Shown: one piece after another, positions 24,322 to 32,347 of the stretch
Position numbering within the stretch: position 1 is the first letter of the stretch
How the letters are laid out: each line of letters opens with the position of its first letter
Source: Octadecabacter sp.
Lineage (GTDB): Bacteria; Pseudomonadota; Alphaproteobacteria; Rhodobacterales; Rhodobacteraceae
Assembly: GCA_017886375.1 (NCBI GenBank)
Contig: JAGGNB010000174.1
Location: forward strand, 1 to 33,392
Length of the DNA stretch: 33,392 nt
Direction of reading: 5' to 3'
Position numbers and translations under genes: made by a program
Notes under the pieces: model-generated
Database searches by the model: none
Seen by the model: the letters and a program-made list of their open reading frames with translations, nothing else
Told to the model about the DNA's origin: nothing

Positions 24322-25929
24322 TTACCCGCCAATTGCGCGAACAGCCACCCCTTCGTTTGCCAATGCATTCCAGATGCGGCTGTCACGGTCGTAAACGTCA
24401 CGGCGAAAGTTCAACTGACCCGTCGTGTGCGTAAACGCCGTGCGATACACCAAGTGGACCGGAACCGGTTCGTCAAGGTTAACGCGGGTTTCTCTGCCTG
24501 TGCTCAAGTACGACTGAAAAACGCCTTCTGGGTCGTTTTCTTGTGCCGCCAACAATGCATAGGCAAAATCAAACGGGTCGTTCAGACGGATGCAGCCATG
24601 GCTAAACGCGCGGACTTCGCGGCCAAACAACGACTTTGCGGGCGTGTCGTGCAGGTAGATATTGTACTGGTTGGGAAAGATGAATTTCACCAAACCAAGG
24701 GCATTGCCGCGACTGGGCGGCTGGCGCATTGAATAAGGGAACGTTCGGGAATTGAACTGGCTGAAATTTACGTTGCTGCGGTTTATGGCGCGGCCATTGC
24801 GATCGGTGATTTCGATGTGGCTGACCGCGTTGCGGTTGCTTTGCAGCGCTGGCAGATATTCATTCACGATGATGGAACGCGGGACATACCAGCTGGGGTT
24901 GATAACCATAAATTCCATGACGTCGGAAAATTCAGGGGTCTGGCGGTCGCTGACAGTGGCACCGATGACCGAACGGGTCTGAAACGTGACGCGGTCATTG
25001 TCCATGATTGCAGCAGAAAAATCAACGAGGTTGACCCAAACGTGGCGTTCCCCCCGTGGGCGGTTCATCCAACGTTCGCGTTCCATCGCAACGATGATCT
25101 GTTGCAAACGGCTGGCGGCGGGCACGTTAATCTCTGTCAGGGTTCCGGCACCTGCTTCACCGTCCTCAGTCAGGCCATGGGCCTGCTGGAACCGCTGAAC
25201 CGCCGCTTGAATCGTCGCGTCATAGGTTTGCGTCGCGGAGCGTTCCATATACCCCATGGCAACCAAGCGGTCGCGTAACGCCACAACCGCCACGCCCGAT
25301 GCCCCAACAGTGAGACTGCCAGATGGGACAGCCGGACCCCAACCGCCCTGCGCCAAAAGACGTTCAAGGGACATCTTTTCGCGCAACAGGCGGGCATATT
25401 CCGGAGAATTTGGCGGTAAACTGGCGAGGTAGGATGCCGGCGTGCTGGCAGCAAACCCCTGCAGATATCCAAGCCGTGAGCGCAGCGGCACTTCGCGACG
25501 AATTTCGGACACAACGCTTCTTGGAGTCAGGATGCCGGTCTGAACGTCACGCGCATACGACAAAAACAGGCGCGACATTTCAACTTCCATCGCGCCCTTT
25601 TCGGCAGGCGTGCTGGCGGCCTGCAATCGGGCCATCAATGCGTCTGGATCATATTCAGCGGCAGGCAAGCCGTGATCTCCGGCGCCCGCAAAGGCCCCCA
25701 ACAACGCATTGCGGCGTGCGCGGTCGCGTCCGGTGGTGCCTGTCCATATGCCTTCAAATTCGCGCCCACGATAAAATTCAGCCAATACGTCGTCGCGTGC
25801 GGCCCCCTCAGCGACAGCTTGGCGGAACGCTGTGGTCTGTGCCGTCGCAATTTGTGGCGCTGCAGCAAAGGACAAAACAATCGCCAAAAGCGCAAAAGCA
25901 CGCAGGAATAGGTGGTTAAAGGTCGGCAT
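24322..25929 (-). CDS. L,D-transpeptidase with peptidoglycan-binding domain (YcbB/LdtD type)
   Basis: A 535-residue periplasmic enzyme that forms 3-3 cross-links between meso-diaminopimelate residues of peptidoglycan, or attaches proteins to it. Signal peptide to about residue 30 ([19 protein letters not shown]), a helical scaffold region to about 200, a peptidoglycan-binding domain at 206-266 ([37 protein letters not shown]), and the YkuD catalytic domain at about 297-475 with the catalytic C446 in SHGCIRLND and the upstream IYLHDTP motif. The domain order matches LdtD/YcbB of E. coli. GGGGGA lies before the ATG. lpxD follows after 38 bp, probably in the same transcript. A DUF882 peptidase gene is divergent. 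Confidence 0.95.
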
Positions 25930-26984: not shown

Positions 26985-27013
26985 TTATGGTGGGGCGTGG
27001 TGAAGGTGGACTG

Positions 27014-29704
27014 ATGGCAAATAGCTGTCCTTTTCTTGCGAATATTCAAGCTCAAGAACGTCTCACTGGGGCGCGATATGACGACGACATCTCTGAAACG
27101 TTCAGCGGTGGCGCGGATCCGGTGCAGGTGTCGATGGTTGTGTTTGATCAAGACGGCGACAACCCCAACAGCGCCGGATTAAGCACTCTGTTTACCACGT
27201 TCGGCCAGTTCCTCGATCACGATATGGTTTTGACGCCAGAGGATCACGACGCGGGAATACTCAACCTCGTCGGAATGCCGCATGATATCGCGCGCTCGCA
27301 AGTCGCAGAGGAGATCGGCGACGGAGAAACCATTGCACCGACCAACGCGGTGACTTGGCAGATCGACGGTAGCCAAGTTTACGGGTCAACTGAGGCGCGG
27401 ATGGAGGATCTGCGTAGTTTTGAGGGTGGCAAACTGCGGATGCAGGACGATACGACATCCGCGTCCGATATGCTGCCTGATGCCGACGAAGACAGTTTTA
27501 TGGCGGGCGACATCAGCGGCGATGATCCGGTGTATCTTGCCGGTGACATCCGCGCCAATGAGAACCCTAACCTGCTGTCGTTGCAGACATTATTTGTGCG
27601 TGAACACAATCATTGGGCGGATAAGCTTGCGCAGGAACACCCCGATTGGTCCGACGAACAACTTTACGACGCCGCGCGATCCATTGTCGAATACGAACTG
27701 CAACAGATCACCTACAAGGAATGGTTGCCGCATCTGATTGGCGATGCCGTTGGGGAAGACACGGGATTTGATGCCAGTGTTTCGGGCGAGTCGTCAGTAG
27801 AATTCTCTACCGCAGCTTTCCGCTTTGGTCATACGCTTGTGTCATCCAGCATTGATCTGGTTGGCGAAGACGGGACCGATGCAGGTTCGGTCGCTTTGAT
27901 GGACGCATTCTTCAACCACTCGCCCGTGGAAGACAACGGCATCGAAGCGATCATGCGCGGCCAGTTGAGCGCGACTGCACAAGAACTCGACACCGAAATT
28001 GTCGATGATTTAAACTTTTTCCTTGAGACACCGGACGGCGTGTCGGGTTTTTCCCTCGCAGCGCTGAACCTCGCGCGGGGCCTTGATCATGGGCTCGACA
28101 GCTATATCGAGGTGCGTGCGCAATTGATCGGTGACATTGATCCTGCGACGCTGGACCCGCAAGATTTCTCAATCATAACGAGCGACGAAGACGTGCAAGC
28201 GCGCCTTGCGGCGGTTTATGACGATGTCTTTCAGGTCGACCTGTGGGTCGGCGGACTGGCCGAAGACGCAATTACGGGCACCCAGATGGGGCCCCTGTTC
28301 ACCCACATCATTACCGACCAATTCACCCGCACCCGCGCGGCGGACGACACGTTCGGCGACCTTGACCCCGCATTGGGCGACGACATCATTGCGGAAGTGA
28401 AGGCCAGTTCTTTCGCCACGATAATCGCGCGTAACACCGACGTGGACATGGTGCAGGACGACGTATTCCTCGCCGCTGACCGCAGCCTGACGGAGATTGA
28501 GGCGATTGAAACCTCATGGCGCGCAGACGTGATCGACTTGGCCGCAAAATCGCTGAACGGGTCGCTTTATACTGGGTCTGGCGATGACATTTTGACGCTG
28601 TCCGGCGGCACGGTGATCAGCGGCAATGTGCACATGGAACTCGGCAACGACACGCTGATCGCGAGCAGCGGCGTCATCACCGGCAGCGTCGATATGGGGC
28701 TTGGCGATGACACCGTCACGCTGACGGGCACCGCGGATGTGCTGGGTGACGTCAGCACCTACAACGGCGACGCCACTGTGACTTTAGCAGACATGGCGCA
28801 TGTTGGCGGCAGCGTGTTAACCGGCCACGGCGACGATGCTGTGGTGTTAACGGGCCGCGCGACGATTGACGGCGATCTGCGCACCGGGCACGGCCAAGAC
28901 GACATTTTCCTTGGCGCACGGACCACGGTGAGCGGCGAGGTAGATGCCGGCAAAGGCGACGATATCATCCGGCTTGAGGCTGGTGCATCGGTCAAAAGCA
29001 TCAATGGTGGTAAAGGGTTAGACACCTTAACGCGGTCGGAAAACACCCGCATCGAATATGACGAAGACCCCACCAATGGCACAGTTTTCTATCTGGACGA
29101 TGCTGGCAATGACACCGGCGAAAGTGTTGATTTCCAATCCATCGAACGCATCACCTGCTTCACCCTCGGCACGCTGATTATCACTGAACGCGGCAAGCAA
29201 GCGATAGAGACATTGCAGGTTGGTGATCGTGTCTGGACCCTCGACAACGGGCTGCGACCCATCGCATGGATTGGCCGCGCGACGGTTGCGGCCACGGGCG
29301 ATCTTGCGCCGATCCTGATCCGCAAAGGTGCGATGCACAACGCGCGTGATCTGCTGGTGTCACCGCAGCACCGCATGATGCTGGATGGATGGCGCGTGGA
29401 AATGCACTGTGGCGCGGATGAGGTTTTGGCCCCAGCAAAGGCGCTTATCAACGATCAAACGATCCGCCGCGTTGAGGGAGGCATTGTGACTTATGTTCAC
29501 ATCGCGTTCGACACCCATGAAATCGTTATGGCCGAAGGCATTGCATCCGAAAGCTTTTTCCCCGGTGCTGAGGCGCTCAACGCGTTGGACCACGCAGCAC
29601 GCAACGAAATCTTGACGCTTTTCCCGCAATGGCGCTGCCCCGCACACCGCCCAACCACAGCGCGGCCAGTGGTTACGACGCGTGAAGCGAAACCGTTGAT
29701 GTAA
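27014..29704 (+). CDS. Secreted animal-type haem peroxidase with repeat domain and C-terminal Hint domain
   Basis: An 896-residue protein in three parts. Residues 1-500 are an animal haem peroxidase: distal side LDHD with D68 and H69, R180 and E183 in LAGDIRANENP, LFVREHNHWADKL, and the proximal H273 in AAFRFGHTL. These match myeloperoxidase D94, H95, R239, E242 and H336. Residues about 516-672 are glycine/aspartate-rich repeats. Residues about 713-850 are a Hint domain of the roseobacter type (CFTLGT with C715, then LQVGDRVWTLDNGLRPIAWIG and SPQHRMML). There is no signal peptide, so type I secretion through a C-terminal signal is likely. AAGGTGG before 27014 and the promoter position favour that start over 26987. 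Peroxidase substrate and target are unknown. Confidence 0.93.
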   Translation: MANSCPFLANIQAQERLTGARYDDDISETFSGGADPVQVSMVVFDQDGDNPNSAGLSTLFTTFGQFLDHDMVLTPEDHDAGILNLVGMPHDIARSQVAEEIGDGETIAPTNAVTWQIDGSQVYGSTEARMEDLRSFEGGKLRMQDDTTSASDMLPDADEDSFMAGDISGDDPVYLAGDIRANENPNLLSLQTLFVREHNHWADKLAQEHPDWSDEQLYDAARSIVEYELQQITYKEWLPHLIGDAVGEDTGFDASVSGESSVEFSTAAFRFGHTLVSSSIDLVGEDGTDAGSVALMDAFFNHSPVEDNGIEAIMRGQLSATAQELDTEIVDDLNFFLETPDGVSGFSLAALNLARGLDHGLDSYIEVRAQLIGDIDPATLDPQDFSIITSDEDVQARLAAVYDDVFQVDLWVGGLAEDAITGTQMGPLFTHIITDQFTRTRAADDTFGDLDPALGDDIIAEVKASSFATIIARNTDVDMVQDDVFLAADRSLTEIEAIETSWRADVIDLAAKSLNGSLYTGSGDDILTLSGGTVISGNVHMELGNDTLIASSGVITGSVDMGLGDDTVTLTGTADVLGDVSTYNGDATVTLADMAHVGGSVLTGHGDDAVVLTGRATIDGDLRTGHGQDDIFLGARTTVSGEVDAGKGDDIIRLEAGASVKSINGGKGLDTLTRSENTRIEYDEDPTNGTVFYLDDAGNDTGESVDFQSIERITCFTLGTLIITERGKQAIETLQVGDRVWTLDNGLRPIAWIGRATVAATGDLAPILIRKGAMHNARDLLVSPQHRMMLDGWRVEMHCGADEVLAPAKALINDQTIRRVEGGIVTYVHIAFDTHEIVMAEGIASESFFPGAEALNALDHAARNEILTLFPQWRCPAHRPTTARPVVTTREAKPLM
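28559..29029 (+). repeat. Six to seven roughly 21-residue repeats inside the peroxidase
   Basis: Successive units share the pattern G-x-V/L-x-x-G-x-G-D-D-x-x-x-L, for example GSVDMGLGDDTVTL, GSVLTGHGDDAVVL and GEVDAGKGDDIIRL, with each unit ending in a valine- or isoleucine-rich turn. This looks like a calcium-binding or beta-helical repeat related to, but not identical with, the nine-residue RTX repeat. Confidence 0.75.
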
Positions 29705-29740: not shown

Positions 29741-32290
29741 TCACGAATCACAGCGCCTCAACTCGATCGCATCACGGGGCGCATGTTGGTTGCGCATCAT
29801 TTCGTGACCATGATGACTCGTTTTGCGGGATCGCGCGACGTCGGGACCCGCTTGCGCACCACTGCGGGAGGCGACCAGCATCTTGGCAAACGCGGACTCG
29901 GCCATTGGGCGTGCAAGGATGAAACCCTGCAGCGCCTCACACTCCAGCTGCAATATCGCGTTGAGCTGCTTTTGCGTTTCAATTCCTTCAACCACGACAC
30001 CACACCCTTCAAGGGCCGCAACCCGCGCCAAGGCTTTGAGAATAAGAATTTGCGACGGATTTGTTTCGAGCGGGGCCACCAACTTCCGATCGATTTTTAC
30101 CCTGTCCGGCCGCACTGTTTGCAGCGCAACGATTGAAGATCGACCCGAGCCGAAATCATCCAATTCGAGCCGGATGCCCGCCGCGCGAAGTTGATTTAAT
30201 GTGTCGCTTATCGCGTTGTCGCAGGTGTCCAGAAAAGCAGTCTCCAACAGTTCAAATGAAATCGCGTGGTGCGGCTGAACCCGATCAGAAATATGTTGCA
30301 ACAAACCAGGTTCCTGCAGGCGGTCGAACGAGATATTTAACGCAACAATCGGCACTTCAAGCCCGGCTTTTGCCCATTTGGTTTGTGCGTCCAACACGAA
30401 ATCAAACACATAGTCATCAATGCGCGGCAGCAATCCGGTCTTGTGCGCGAGGGCCAAGAATTCATCCGGCCCGATCAAGCCGCGTTCAGGGCAATTCCAA
30501 CGCACGAGCGCCTCAGCCCCGATAAGGGCATTGGTTTTTGCATCAAATTGGGGTTGAAAATGGCAGATGATCTGACCTGATGTTAGCGCTGTGCGCAGGT
30601 TGTTATGCGCGTGCGCATCAATCTGGGTGACTGCACGCAGCCCCGGCGCGAAGACCTTAAAGCAGGACCGTCCGTCGGATTTCGCCGCATAAAGCGCAAC
30701 ATCGGCGTTGATAAACACCTCTGACGCGTCGGCAACATCGCCACGCCCCATCGCGCACCCAAGGCTCAACCCGAATGTTTTGGCCTGTTCATGAATGAAC
30801 ATCGGCTGCGCCATCAGATCAATAATGTCTTGGCACAGCTCATAGACTTCAGTTTCGTCCACAAAGTGTTCCAACAAGACGACAAATTCATCCCCCCCGA
30901 TCCGACAGACCAGACCGCGCGATCCCACAAGGTCGCGCAGGTTTTCAGACACCAGCACAAGCACGCTGTCGCCCGCGCCGTGGCCCAGTGTGTCGTTGAT
31001 TTGCTTGAAATGATCGAGGTCGATGTGCATGACCGCAAACTGGTCTTCGGCGTTGATCCGATCCAGCAGCGCTTGCGTGGTTTCATCCAGCAAGCGCCGG
31101 TTCGCCAAACCGGTCAACGCATCATGGCGCGAGTCGTGTTCTAGCAATTCACGGGCGCGTTCCAGTTCTTGCGCGCGGTGATAGTCATCCGTCACGTCAA
31201 TATTCACACCAAGCATTCTGCCATTGGACTTTGACGTACGCACAAACCGCGCAAGGCTGCGCACATGGCGCACTTCCCCGTCATCGCGCACAATCCGGAA
31301 ATCGCGGTTAAAATCATCCCTCTGCTGAAAACACAGTTGGGCGTAGTCCTTGGTTCCTTGGGCGTCATCGGGATGCAGGTGGGTTTCCCAGATTTCAGAC
31401 AGATCGAGATCTGTGTCGTTGGTAATGCCATACATTTCAAGCATCCGGTCGTCCCAGTCTTCCAAACCGGTCTCTGCGTCAAATTCCCACACACCGATCC
31501 CTGCCGCTTCAATCGCCAGCTGCATTTTATTGCTGAGCTTCGTAAGCTCTGTCTCATTTTCCTTAATCGCGGTGATGTCGGTATCGACGCCAACAATTTC
31601 AACAGGTTGACCGGCGGCGTCGTAGGACATCACCTTTGATCGGCACGAAAACCAGATCCAATGCCCGTCGGGATGCCAGCGGCGATACTGTGAATTCACC
31701 TTGTCTTTGTCGCCGCTCACTTGGCCATTGAACAAGGCCTGCACCATCTCGCGGTCATCGGGATGGATTTCTTGCAACCATTTCTCGCGGTGGGTGTGAT
31801 TTGTAGCGAGGTCTTCGTCCAACGCGATGCCCCGCATCCGGCGCCAGGCATCCGAGACGTTGAAGGATTTCTCCAACGTGTTGTAGTTCCATATCCCTTG
31901 ATCAAGATGTTCGAGCAAGAACCGCAACCGCGAACTGTCGATCGCATTATCCGGTGTGAGCTGGCATAAATAAAGCCCATGCTGTGTCGTTTGCGCGATG
32001 CTGTTTAGGGTTAATTTAAGATGCCCTGAGGCGGCGTTCACTTTGGTTACAAATGCTGTTTTGTGCCCAGTTCCACGCGCAAAAAAAGCGGCAACATCCG
32101 CGCCGCAACTTGGACGCAAAACATCCCATAAGGCAGCCCCGAACGTCTGCGGTGCAGTGACAGACAGGCACGACAGAAAGTCGCTGTTCCAAGATAAAAT
32201 CGTACCCGTCCCATCAACCACAGCGGCAGGCTGCGCCATGACGGACACTACAGCAGTGGCGAATGCGTGATCGGCCGGTGCGTCACCCAT
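29741..32290 (-). CDS. PAS-PAS-GGDEF-EAL cyclic-di-GMP turnover protein
   Basis: An 849-residue enzyme, probably cytoplasmic as no membrane segment is seen. The N-terminal part, to about residue 385, holds two or three PAS/PAC sensor units (IHPDDREMVQALFNG, VEIVGVDTDITA, THLHPDDAQGT, MLGVNIDVTD). The diguanylate cyclase domain follows (HDALTGLANRR, IDLDHFKQINDTLGH) with an intact GGDEF motif at 465-469. The EAL phosphodiesterase domain has EAL at 593-595 and the other catalytic landmarks (ALNISFDRL, FELLETAFLD, DDFGSGRSS, KIDRKLV, VVVEGIET), so both activities are possible. I chose the ATG at 32290; a GTG at 32329 is also open. Neither has a strong ribosome site. It converges on the peroxidase gene. 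Confidence 0.93.
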   Translation of the reverse strand: MGDAPADHAFATAVVSVMAQPAAVVDGTGTILSWNSDFLSCLSVTAPQTFGAALWDVLRPSCGADVAAFFARGTGHKTAFVTKVNAASGHLKLTLNSIAQTTQHGLYLCQLTPDNAIDSSRLRFLLEHLDQGIWNYNTLEKSFNVSDAWRRMRGIALDEDLATNHTHREKWLQEIHPDDREMVQALFNGQVSGDKDKVNSQYRRWHPDGHWIWFSCRSKVMSYDAAGQPVEIVGVDTDITAIKENETELTKLSNKMQLAIEAAGIGVWEFDAETGLEDWDDRMLEMYGITNDTDLDLSEIWETHLHPDDAQGTKDYAQLCFQQRDDFNRDFRIVRDDGEVRHVRSLARFVRTSKSNGRMLGVNIDVTDDYHRAQELERARELLEHDSRHDALTGLANRRLLDETTQALLDRINAEDQFAVMHIDLDHFKQINDTLGHGAGDSVLVLVSENLRDLVGSRGLVCRIGGDEFVVLLEHFVDETEVYELCQDIIDLMAQPMFIHEQAKTFGLSLGCAMGRGDVADASEVFINADVALYAAKSDGRSCFKVFAPGLRAVTQIDAHAHNNLRTALTSGQIICHFQPQFDAKTNALIGAEALVRWNCPERGLIGPDEFLALAHKTGLLPRIDDYVFDFVLDAQTKWAKAGLEVPIVALNISFDRLQEPGLLQHISDRVQPHHAISFELLETAFLDTCDNAISDTLNQLRAAGIRLELDDFGSGRSSIVALQTVRPDRVKIDRKLVAPLETNPSQILILKALARVAALEGCGVVVEGIETQKQLNAILQLECEALQGFILARPMAESAFAKMLVASRSGAQAGPDVARSRKTSHHGHEMMRNQHAPRDAIELRRCDS

Positions 32291-32347
32291 GATGAAAATC
32301 TCAACCAACTTGTGAACAAAACATCCCACAGGCGTAACGATCCAAAG

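What the first reader, a model, noticed from the sequence alone, without database searches (positions are those of the whole stretch)
27014..29704. Haem peroxidase fused to a repeat domain and a Hint domain
The sequence shows a complete animal-type peroxidase catalytic set (D68, H69, R180, E183, H273), a run of roughly 21-residue repeats with G-x-G-D-D cores, and a Hint domain whose leading residue is Cys715. Hint domains of inteins and hedgehog proteins cut the peptide bond before that Cys. If active, it would free the peroxidase-repeat part after secretion. This could be a secreted oxidant-generating enzyme, acting on rivals, surfaces or algal partners. The haem-linking residues D68 and E183 point to covalent haem as in myeloperoxidase; the residue after E183 is Asn, not the Met of myeloperoxidase.
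Basis: partly seen in the sequence, partly recalled or inferred. Interest (0 to 1): 0.7.

Follow-up and report, generated by a model that had tools for sequence, protein, structure and literature searches.

The report
Secreted peroxidase with self-cutting tail module
A marine bacterium carries a gene for an oxidant-making haem enzyme joined to a rigid calcium-type stalk and a probably self-cleaving tail, and a sister gene at the same chromosomal spot has that tail swapped for a classical secretion tail, which suggests what this very common but unstudied tail does.

Summary
Window 27014-29704 encodes an 896-residue protein: an animal-type haem peroxidase (residues 13-485), a beta-solenoid of 21-residue G-x-G-D-D-type repeats (about 500-690), a Hint_2 domain starting at Cys715, and a conserved 45-residue tail. 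No N-terminal signal peptide is seen. It is an Octadecabacter-group gene: 12 of 19 genus genomes hold a full-length copy, one a copy cut by a contig end, one a broken copy.

New points. (1) The gene sits at a conserved locus (KAS-hexapeptide-LDT-MepK-peroxidase). One relative at that locus (L019) has the same peroxidase and repeats but canonical RTX repeats instead of the Hint, the swap falling just before the cleavage Cys. It is nested inside the Hint clade; the five nearest outgroups examined carry RTX repeats. So Hint plus tail stands where a type I secretion C-terminus stands. (2) The repeats match the Ca-bound solenoid of the Marinomonas ice-binding protein (3p4g) but lack its Thr array. 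(3) Hint_2 is ordinary here: 104 of 120 family genomes have it.

Best reading: a type I-secreted peroxidase that self-cleaves at Cys715. Cleavage, secretion and substrate are inferred. New variant of a known kind.

The parts
27014..29704 (+). peroxidase-solenoid-Hint gene, 896 aa
   Evidence: ORF; orthologues aligned over full length
27003..27009 (+). Shine-Dalgarno-like AAGGTGG upstream of ATG 27014
   Evidence: sequence
27026..27034 (+). N-terminal Cys-Pro-Phe (residues 5-7), also in the Octadecabacter-group, Jannaschia (L054, L057) and L019 rows; absent from L023, L024, L055, L056
27050..28468 (+). An_peroxidase domain (residues 13-485): Q65 D68 H69 D70 R180 E183 H273 N352
   Evidence: PF03098 364 bits; residues; Foldseek 6erc, 8s6c
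28511..29083 (+). beta-solenoid of 21-residue G-x-G-D-D-type repeats (residues about 500-690)
   Evidence: period 21; block pLDDT 82-97 from residue 495 to 664, 56-66 after it; profile match to 3p4g E=2.2e-16
29084..29155 (+). cap/linker to residue 714 (F..IE.IT), shared up to F-x-x-I-E with the RTX-ended relative L019
29156..29566 (+). Hint_2 domain, residues 715-851; C715, S-P-Q-H motif, F-D-x-H motif
   Evidence: PF13403 172.5 bits; Foldseek BIL/intein hits, probability 1.00
29567..29701 (+). conserved C-terminal tail (residues 852-896), ...LFP....AR..[LV]...EA..L
   Evidence: low pLDDT, short helices
26287..26856 (+). MepK peptidoglycan endopeptidase, conserved upstream neighbour
   Evidence: NF053624; synteny
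24322..25929 (-). L,D-transpeptidase, conserved neighbour
   Evidence: synteny

Best explanation
A secreted haem peroxidase. Shown by sequence: an intact animal-type peroxidase domain, a Ca-type beta-solenoid, and a C-terminal Hint_2 domain with conserved nucleophile plus a conserved tail. Inferred: (1) the chain has no Sec/Tat signal and leaves the cell through a type I secretion system, the Hint+tail taking the place that RTX repeats plus C-terminal signal hold in its relatives; (2) outside, Ca2+ folds the solenoid, and haem is bound and ester-linked at D68 and E183 through H2O2; (3) the Hint folds, Cys715 makes the N-S acyl shift, and the thioester is resolved by water or a small nucleophile, freeing peroxidase+solenoid (residues 1-714, about 75 kDa) from Hint+tail (about 20 kDa); (4) compound I oxidises iodide, thiocyanate, perhaps bromide, or one-electron donors, using H2O2 in the water.
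For: Domains and catalytic residues. Domain swap: L019 keeps peroxidase, repeats and cap but ends in RTX repeats, the break falling just before Cys715; it lies at the same LDT-MepK locus and inside the Hint clade (fork 100/100), while the outgroups examined (L020, L158, L058, L017, L018) carry RTX repeats after the peroxidase. None of 15 Hint-clade rows has, within the first 80 residues counted from the upstream stop, an 11-residue hydrophobicity above 1.84, against 2.75 for LDT and 2.29 for MepK. Three ABC+HlyD sets in the genome. Hint_2 and type I HlyD co-occur in 120 family genomes (101 both, 11 HlyD only, 3 Hint only, 5 neither; Fisher p=0.001). 13 of 48 other Hint_2 proteins carry 3 or more GGxGxD upstream. 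Cys, S-P-x-H and F-block His kept in 12 of 12 complete rows of A2. Hint dN/dS about 0.09, peroxidase about 0.07.
Against: No direct evidence of secretion, haem binding or cleavage. No T1SS gene was recognised beside the peroxidase. The two Jannaschia Hint proteins that are sister to L019 do not lie at the LDT-MepK locus, so position and tree do not tell one simple story. The hydrophobicity test is crude: the PAS-GGDEF-EAL control scores 2.09, and the RTX outgroup L020 has a 2.62 stretch upstream of its likely start. G036 (100% complete) has 11 Hint_2 matches but no HlyD hit at E<=1e-60 and no ABC over the PrtD cut-off. 6 of 48 other Hint_2 domains lack the Cys (rows; one has Ser there), so the fold can persist without it. 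The F-block Asp is lost in 2 of 12 rows (L046, L050). The tail does not visibly resemble the C-termini of the RTX-ended relatives. dS is near saturation (medians 1.0-1.8).
Confidence: 0.5

Rival explanations
1. Hint and tail serve only as a folded T1SS secretion/retention module; the Hint does not cut, and the enzyme works as a full-length chain.
For: RTX/Hint swap; 6 of 48 other Hint_2 domains lack the Cys; no His-Asn at the end of the Hint.
Against: In the peroxidase clade the Cys, S-P-x-H and F-block His are kept in 12 of 12 complete rows, and the domain is under strong purifying selection, more than a spacer would need.
Confidence: 0.25
2. The Hint transfers the peroxidase-solenoid to a nucleophile (surface amine, lipid or polymer), as hedgehog's Hint does with cholesterol, so the enzyme becomes covalently displayed.
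For: Hint near the C-end with no C-extein, as in hedgehog; a shared tail after the Hint in many unrelated passengers could bind the acceptor.
Against: No room for a sterol-recognition-like region: the tail is about 45 residues with low model confidence; no acceptor known.
Confidence: 0.15
3. A MopA/AHP-type enzyme: an extracellular superoxide source and Mn(II) oxidase.
For: A secreted animal haem peroxidase does this in Roseobacter sp. AzwK-3b (PMC6414704, passages; PMC6247904, introduction).
Against: The long proteins of the family with An_peroxidase domains (MopA-like by size; four rows) form a separate clade on a long branch; this protein is 896 aa with one domain and no run of GGxGxD repeats. 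In P. putida GB-1 MopA showed no activity in wild type (PMC11930936, passages).
Confidence: 0.15
4. The solenoid is an ice-binding domain that tethers the enzyme to sea ice.
For: Profile match to MpAFP region IV, E=2.2e-16; Octadecabacter is known from polar ice (recalled).
Against: The Thr/Asn array is absent: Thr at the second core position in 3 of 79 cores and Asn at the fourth in 10 of 79, against Thr in 10 of 11 and Asn in 8 of 11 core matches in the 3p4g rows.
Confidence: 0.04

Closest known systems
Bacterial/cyanobacterial and Dictyostelium peroxidases of the peroxidase-cyclooxygenase superfamily (8s6c TDX16 peroxidase; 6erc DdPoxA; LspPOX known only from references and recall)
   Same: fold, distal Gln-His-Arg, proximal His-Asn, ester-forming Glu; best sequence and fold matches
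   Different: the solved chains (511-528 residues) are little longer than the peroxidase domain, with no room for solenoid or Hint; DdPoxA lacks the distal Asp ester (PMC5787809 passages)
RTX-ended peroxidases of Rhodobacteraceae (L019, L020, L158, L058) and MopA/long peroxicins
   Same: haem peroxidase joined to Ca-type glycine/Asp repeats, T1SS-type layout
   Different: here the canonical RTX and C-terminus are replaced by a 21-residue solenoid plus Hint_2; long peroxicins are 1600-3300 aa with duplicated peroxidase domains (PMC4420034 passages), though single-domain MopA exists (2138 aa, PMC6247904)
Hint_2 (PF13403) proteins; B-type bacterial intein-like domains
   Same: Hint fold, Cys1, B-block Ser-x-x-His, F-block His; no His-Asn at the end
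   Different: at the C-end (at most 70 residues follow in 61 of 62 domains), mostly with a shared tail; no experiment on Hint_2 activity seen
Marinomonas primoryensis ice-binding protein region IV (3p4g)
   Same: one GxGxD turn per rung, Ca-type beta-solenoid
   Different: 21 instead of about 19 residues; no Thr/Asn face

Membership tests
Peroxidase-cyclooxygenase superfamily (An_peroxidase) | Pfam profile, distal His, Arg-x-x-Glu, proximal His-Asn | tested here: met
   364 bits over 25; residues invariant in 22 chosen rows
Peroxidase-cyclooxygenase superfamily (An_peroxidase) | haem bound and covalently linked, peroxidase activity | not testable with these tools
   needs protein
MPO-type | Met forming the sulfonium link after the ester Glu (residue place recalled) | tested here: not met
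   N184 in that place
MopA / long peroxicin | 1600-3300 aa, hemolysin-type nonapeptides, often duplicated peroxidase domains | tested here: not met
   896 aa, one domain, 0 of 14 peroxidase-Hint proteins with 3 or more GGxGxD, separate clade from four long proteins (no MopA itself in the tree)
Hint_2 (PF13403) | profile score over the curated cut-off | tested here: met
   172.5 bits over 28.4
Intein | G-block His-Asn and C-extein nucleophile | tested here: not met
   S-E-S-F stands at the end of the Hint in 12 of 12 complete rows of A2
A-type BIL | C-terminal His-Asn | tested here: not met
B-type BIL | intein motifs A, B, F without the C-terminal motif, N-terminal cleavage | tested here: inconclusive
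   motifs present; fold hits are BIL and inteins; weak profile match 2lwy E=0.016; cleavage not tested
Hedgehog Hog domain | sterol-recognition region after Hint | tested here: not met
   only about 45 residues follow the Hint
RTX protein | tandem GGxGxDxUx nonapeptides | tested here: not met
   21-residue period; 0 of 14 with 3 or more GGxGxD
MpAFP-RIV ice-binding solenoid | Thr/Asn array on the turn | tested here: not met
Type I secretion substrate | no N-terminal signal; C-terminal signal | tested here: inconclusive
   no signal peptide by hydrophobicity; swap with RTX C-terminus; signal function untested

The most novel reading that the evidence does not exclude
Hint_2 plus its conserved tail is a family-wide bacterial counterpart of hedgehog processing: a C-terminal module, interchangeable with RTX/T1SS C-termini, that takes unrelated passengers out of Rhodobacteraceae cells and then cuts itself off at Cys1, possibly transferring the passenger to a surface nucleophile. 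The peroxidase is one client, and its same-locus RTX twin is the natural control.
Probability: 0.25. Interest if true: 0.8.

Novelty: new variant of a known kind. Interest (0 to 1): 0.48.

Why it matters
Hint_2 is present in 104 of 120 sampled genomes of the family, in up to 20 copies at E<=1e-25, yet only 2 papers of the held library name PF13403; one of them says that Hint, RTX and transpeptidase domains are overrepresented in strongly responding marine Rhodobacteraceae (PMC12487129, passages). An enzyme gene whose C-terminus is RTX in one lineage and Hint in its sisters gives a natural experiment on what the module does, with an enzyme activity as read-out. It may also add a secreted oxidant source to these marine bacteria.

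Tried and rejected
Ice-binding reading of the solenoid: rejected on the missing Thr/Asn array. MopA membership: rejected on size and tree; the four long family proteins in the tree were called MopA-like by size and domain content only, and no MopA sequence was fetched. Hint relatives in viral contigs: none confirmed. Repeat domain on plasmids: no match. Whole protein on plasmids: 279 records match in part, 0 over 80% of it. NCBIfam: no hit. Pfam for the repeats: nothing over cut-off. T1SS linkage: one Hint gene (L198) lies a few kb from an HlyD gene and a neighbouring ABC gene (ABC by eye), but on the other strand with a gene between, so no weight was given. T1SS co-occurrence has one clear exception, G036; of the other two, G028 has an ABC over the PrtD cut-off and G096 one at 316.5 bits, below it; relatedness was not corrected for. 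Phaeobacter exoproteome paper PMC3933643: none of my terms found. Cys-Pro motifs as haem-capture sites: noticed, not tested.

The tail motif was read off these same sequences, so its excess over shuffles (14 of 14 and 36 of 48, about 3.0 and 8.4 expected) is descriptive. One search dropped domains under 90 bits; one search shows two of those from this genome (L013, L015) without the Cys. Of its 9 'no Cys' rows, 3 are regex misses or a cut row (L191, L196, L195), so 6 lack it, one of them (L184) with Ser there. The core counts come from simple patterns that differ slightly between query and 3p4g and include a few off-register matches. In one search the ranges of L054, L055 and L057 began after the likely start; one search repeated the test from the upstream stops. 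dN/dS used 8 sequences and 28 pairs, up to 8 of them saturated for one domain.
Full report
What is there. The window is one contig (G000:C50) of an Octadecabacter-like draft genome (nearest named relatives). The gene at 27014-29704 encodes 896 residues. Pfam gives An_peroxidase at 13-485 (364 bits) and Hint_2 at 714-851 (172.5 bits). That these match the distal Gln-His-Arg, ester-forming Asp and Glu, and proximal His-Asn of mammalian enzymes, and that N184 stands where myeloperoxidase has its sulfonium Met, is recalled knowledge of the family. The best solved relatives are the TDX16 peroxidase 8s6c and Dictyostelium DdPoxA 6erc, before eosinophil, lacto- and myeloperoxidase. DdPoxA oxidises iodide and thiocyanate fast, bromide very slowly and chloride not at all, and the number of haem links tracks the redox potential (PMC5787809, passages). 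So iodide/thiocyanate, perhaps bromide, is the expected chemistry here; that is inference.

Repeats. The period is 21 residues (lag-21 autocorrelation 0.68; maximum of 2000 shuffles 0.18). AlphaFold with 13 rows models residues 495-664 as a beta-solenoid (block pLDDT 82-97), less surely after that (56-66 to about 694). A profile of the C-terminal half finds the Ca-bound region IV of the Marinomonas ice-binding protein, 3p4g, at E=2.2e-16, one of only 3 sequences at E<=1 (repeats can inflate such scores). Foldseek finds it at rank 40, probability 0.96, with a poor superposition (rmsd 8.9). Region IV is a Ca-dependent solenoid of 13 repeats of about 19 residues whose ice face is an array of Thr and Asn (PMC5014055, passages). 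In 79 cores from 13 rows Thr takes its place in 3 and Asn in 10; in the 3p4g rows, 10 and 8 of 11. So: Ca-type solenoid likely, ice binding unlikely.

Hint and tail. Cys715 opens the Hint in 12 of 12 complete rows; S-P-[QL]-H-R and the F-block H-x-I follow, while the F-block Asp is kept in 10 of 12, and the His-Asn that ends inteins and A-type BILs is missing (motif meaning from PMC7765530 section 5, part 1). Foldseek's best hits for the C-terminal half are a BIL domain and inteins, probability 1.00, E 6e-4 to 9e-4 for the first seven. Such a domain can at most cut on its N side. A 45-residue tail follows, with short helices and low confidence in the model. A tail motif AR..L...EA is seen in 14 of 14 peroxidase-Hint proteins and 36 of 48 other Hint_2 proteins, about 3.0 and 8.4 expected in shuffled tails; the motif was read off these sequences. 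Hint dN/dS is about 0.09, beside 0.07 for the peroxidase and 0.24 for the repeats, over 28 pairs near saturation.

How ordinary is the Hint? This genome has 15 Hint_2 matches and one peroxidase. At E<=1e-25 Hint_2 is found in 104 of 120 family genomes and in 3 of 142 genomes drawn from the class, this one included. The An_peroxidase family is found in 90 of 394 family genomes, most at far lower scores or in very long frames; in that sample I saw the Hint-ended kind in four genomes (G000, G049, G145, G333), the list of loci being capped. In the genus, 12 of 19 genomes hold a full-length match, one more a copy cut by its contig end, G535 a copy broken by several stops, and in five the best match covers only repeat/Hint parts.

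The domain swap. Many relatives sit at one place: KAS, hexapeptide protein, L,D-transpeptidase, MepK, peroxidase. This holds in the Octadecabacter-group rows as far as their contigs reach, in L055, L056, L023/L161 and L024/L162, and in L019/L159, but not in the two Jannaschia rows L054 and L057, nor in L020/L160, L158, L163 and L058. L019 has the peroxidase, the same repeats and the cap up to F-x-x-I-E, and then canonical RTX repeats to its end, with no Hint. In a tree of 43 peroxidase domains (IQ-TREE, LG+C20+F+G4) L019 is sister to the two Jannaschia Hint proteins (100/100) inside a 14-row clade (100/99) of otherwise Hint-ended proteins. The outgroups whose ends I examined, L020, L158, L058, L017 and L018, carry RTX repeats (L017 is cut by its contig end; other outgroups were not examined). 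The simplest history is one gain of Hint on an RTX ancestor and one replacement back; several gains are possible, and that L019's Hint sisters lie at another locus is a loose end. G230, which carries L019, has 12 Hint_2 matches, so the swap is not due to lack of Hint genes.

Secretion. Within the first 80 residues counted from the upstream stop, none of 15 Hint-clade rows (14 plus the cut L053) has an 11-residue hydrophobicity above 1.84, against 2.75 and 2.29 for LDT and MepK. This is crude: the PAS-GGDEF-EAL protein reaches 2.09 and another window gene 2.32. The genome has ABC/HlyD pairs at C4, C32 and C93; the ABC of the first two is over the PrtD cut-off, that of the third is not. In 120 genomes Hint_2 (E<=1e-25) and type I HlyD (E<=1e-60) give 101 both, 11 HlyD only, 3 Hint only, 5 neither, p=0.001, relatedness not corrected. 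Of the 3, G028 has an ABC over the PrtD cut-off and G096 one of 316.5 bits; G036 has neither and stands against the rule. 13 of 48 other Hint_2 proteins have 3 or more GGxGxD upstream, a lower bound since many loci are short, and one cluster of three RTX+Hint genes was seen (L200). Together: T1SS export is likely, not shown.

Mechanism and rivals. I put about one half on export by T1SS followed by self-cleavage at Cys715. A non-cutting secretion module is the main rival, since 6 of 48 other Hint_2 domains lack the Cys. Transfer to a surface nucleophile is the boldest reading left open. A Mn/superoxide role, as for the AzwK-3b peroxidase found in outer membrane and exudate (PMC6414704, passages) and for MopA (PMC6247904, abstract and introduction), is possible for any such enzyme, but the protein lies apart from the long MopA-like proteins.

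Prior knowledge. Searches for Hint with peroxidase, Hint with Rhodobacteraceae, Octadecabacter with peroxidase and PF13403 showed no paper on this fusion, and no test of Hint_2 activity, in the listings and passages that I saw; the library lacks most subscription papers. Public annotation of plasmid relatives already reads 'peroxidase family protein' or 'Hint domain-containing protein'. PMC4420034 (passages) describes bacterial peroxicins, the long ones with Ca-binding motifs, and calls the role of family 5 unknown. I file this as a new variant of a known kind: known domains in a combination not described in what I searched, with a useful natural swap.

Noticed in passing
27026-27034 and 29636-29641; L047, L050, L052, L056 C-termini: Two of the protein's four Cys precede Pro (C5-P, C875-P), and four orthologues end in C-P-[FLY]-G-[HS]-[GD]; this recalls Cys-Pro haem-regulatory motifs (recalled) and could serve haem capture after export.
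   Followed up: no
G535:C2:2352658-2355209 (same genus): A peroxidase-Hint copy broken by several stops in a 99% complete genome, so the gene is dispensable in at least one species.
   Followed up: no
G072:C1:360889-370414: A tandem array of seven short Hint_2 genes (open frames of 316-413 aa).
   Followed up: no
L168, L170, L172, L174, L176 (G418, another family): Hint_2 proteins with a shared extension of about 200 residues after the Hint (DDRR..LGVLV), a different kind of Hint_2 protein.
   Followed up: no
L200 (G230:C5:396000-412000): Three neighbouring genes coding for large RTX+Hint_2 proteins with the same kind of tail.
   Followed up: partly
29741-32329 (-): PAS-PAS-GGDEF-EAL protein convergent with the peroxidase gene; found directly beside it only in L047 among the relatives compared.
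   Followed up: no
L184, L011, L009, L012, L179, L197: Hint_2 domains without the first Cys (L184 has Ser there), so a non-cutting role of the fold may exist in the family.
   Followed up: partly
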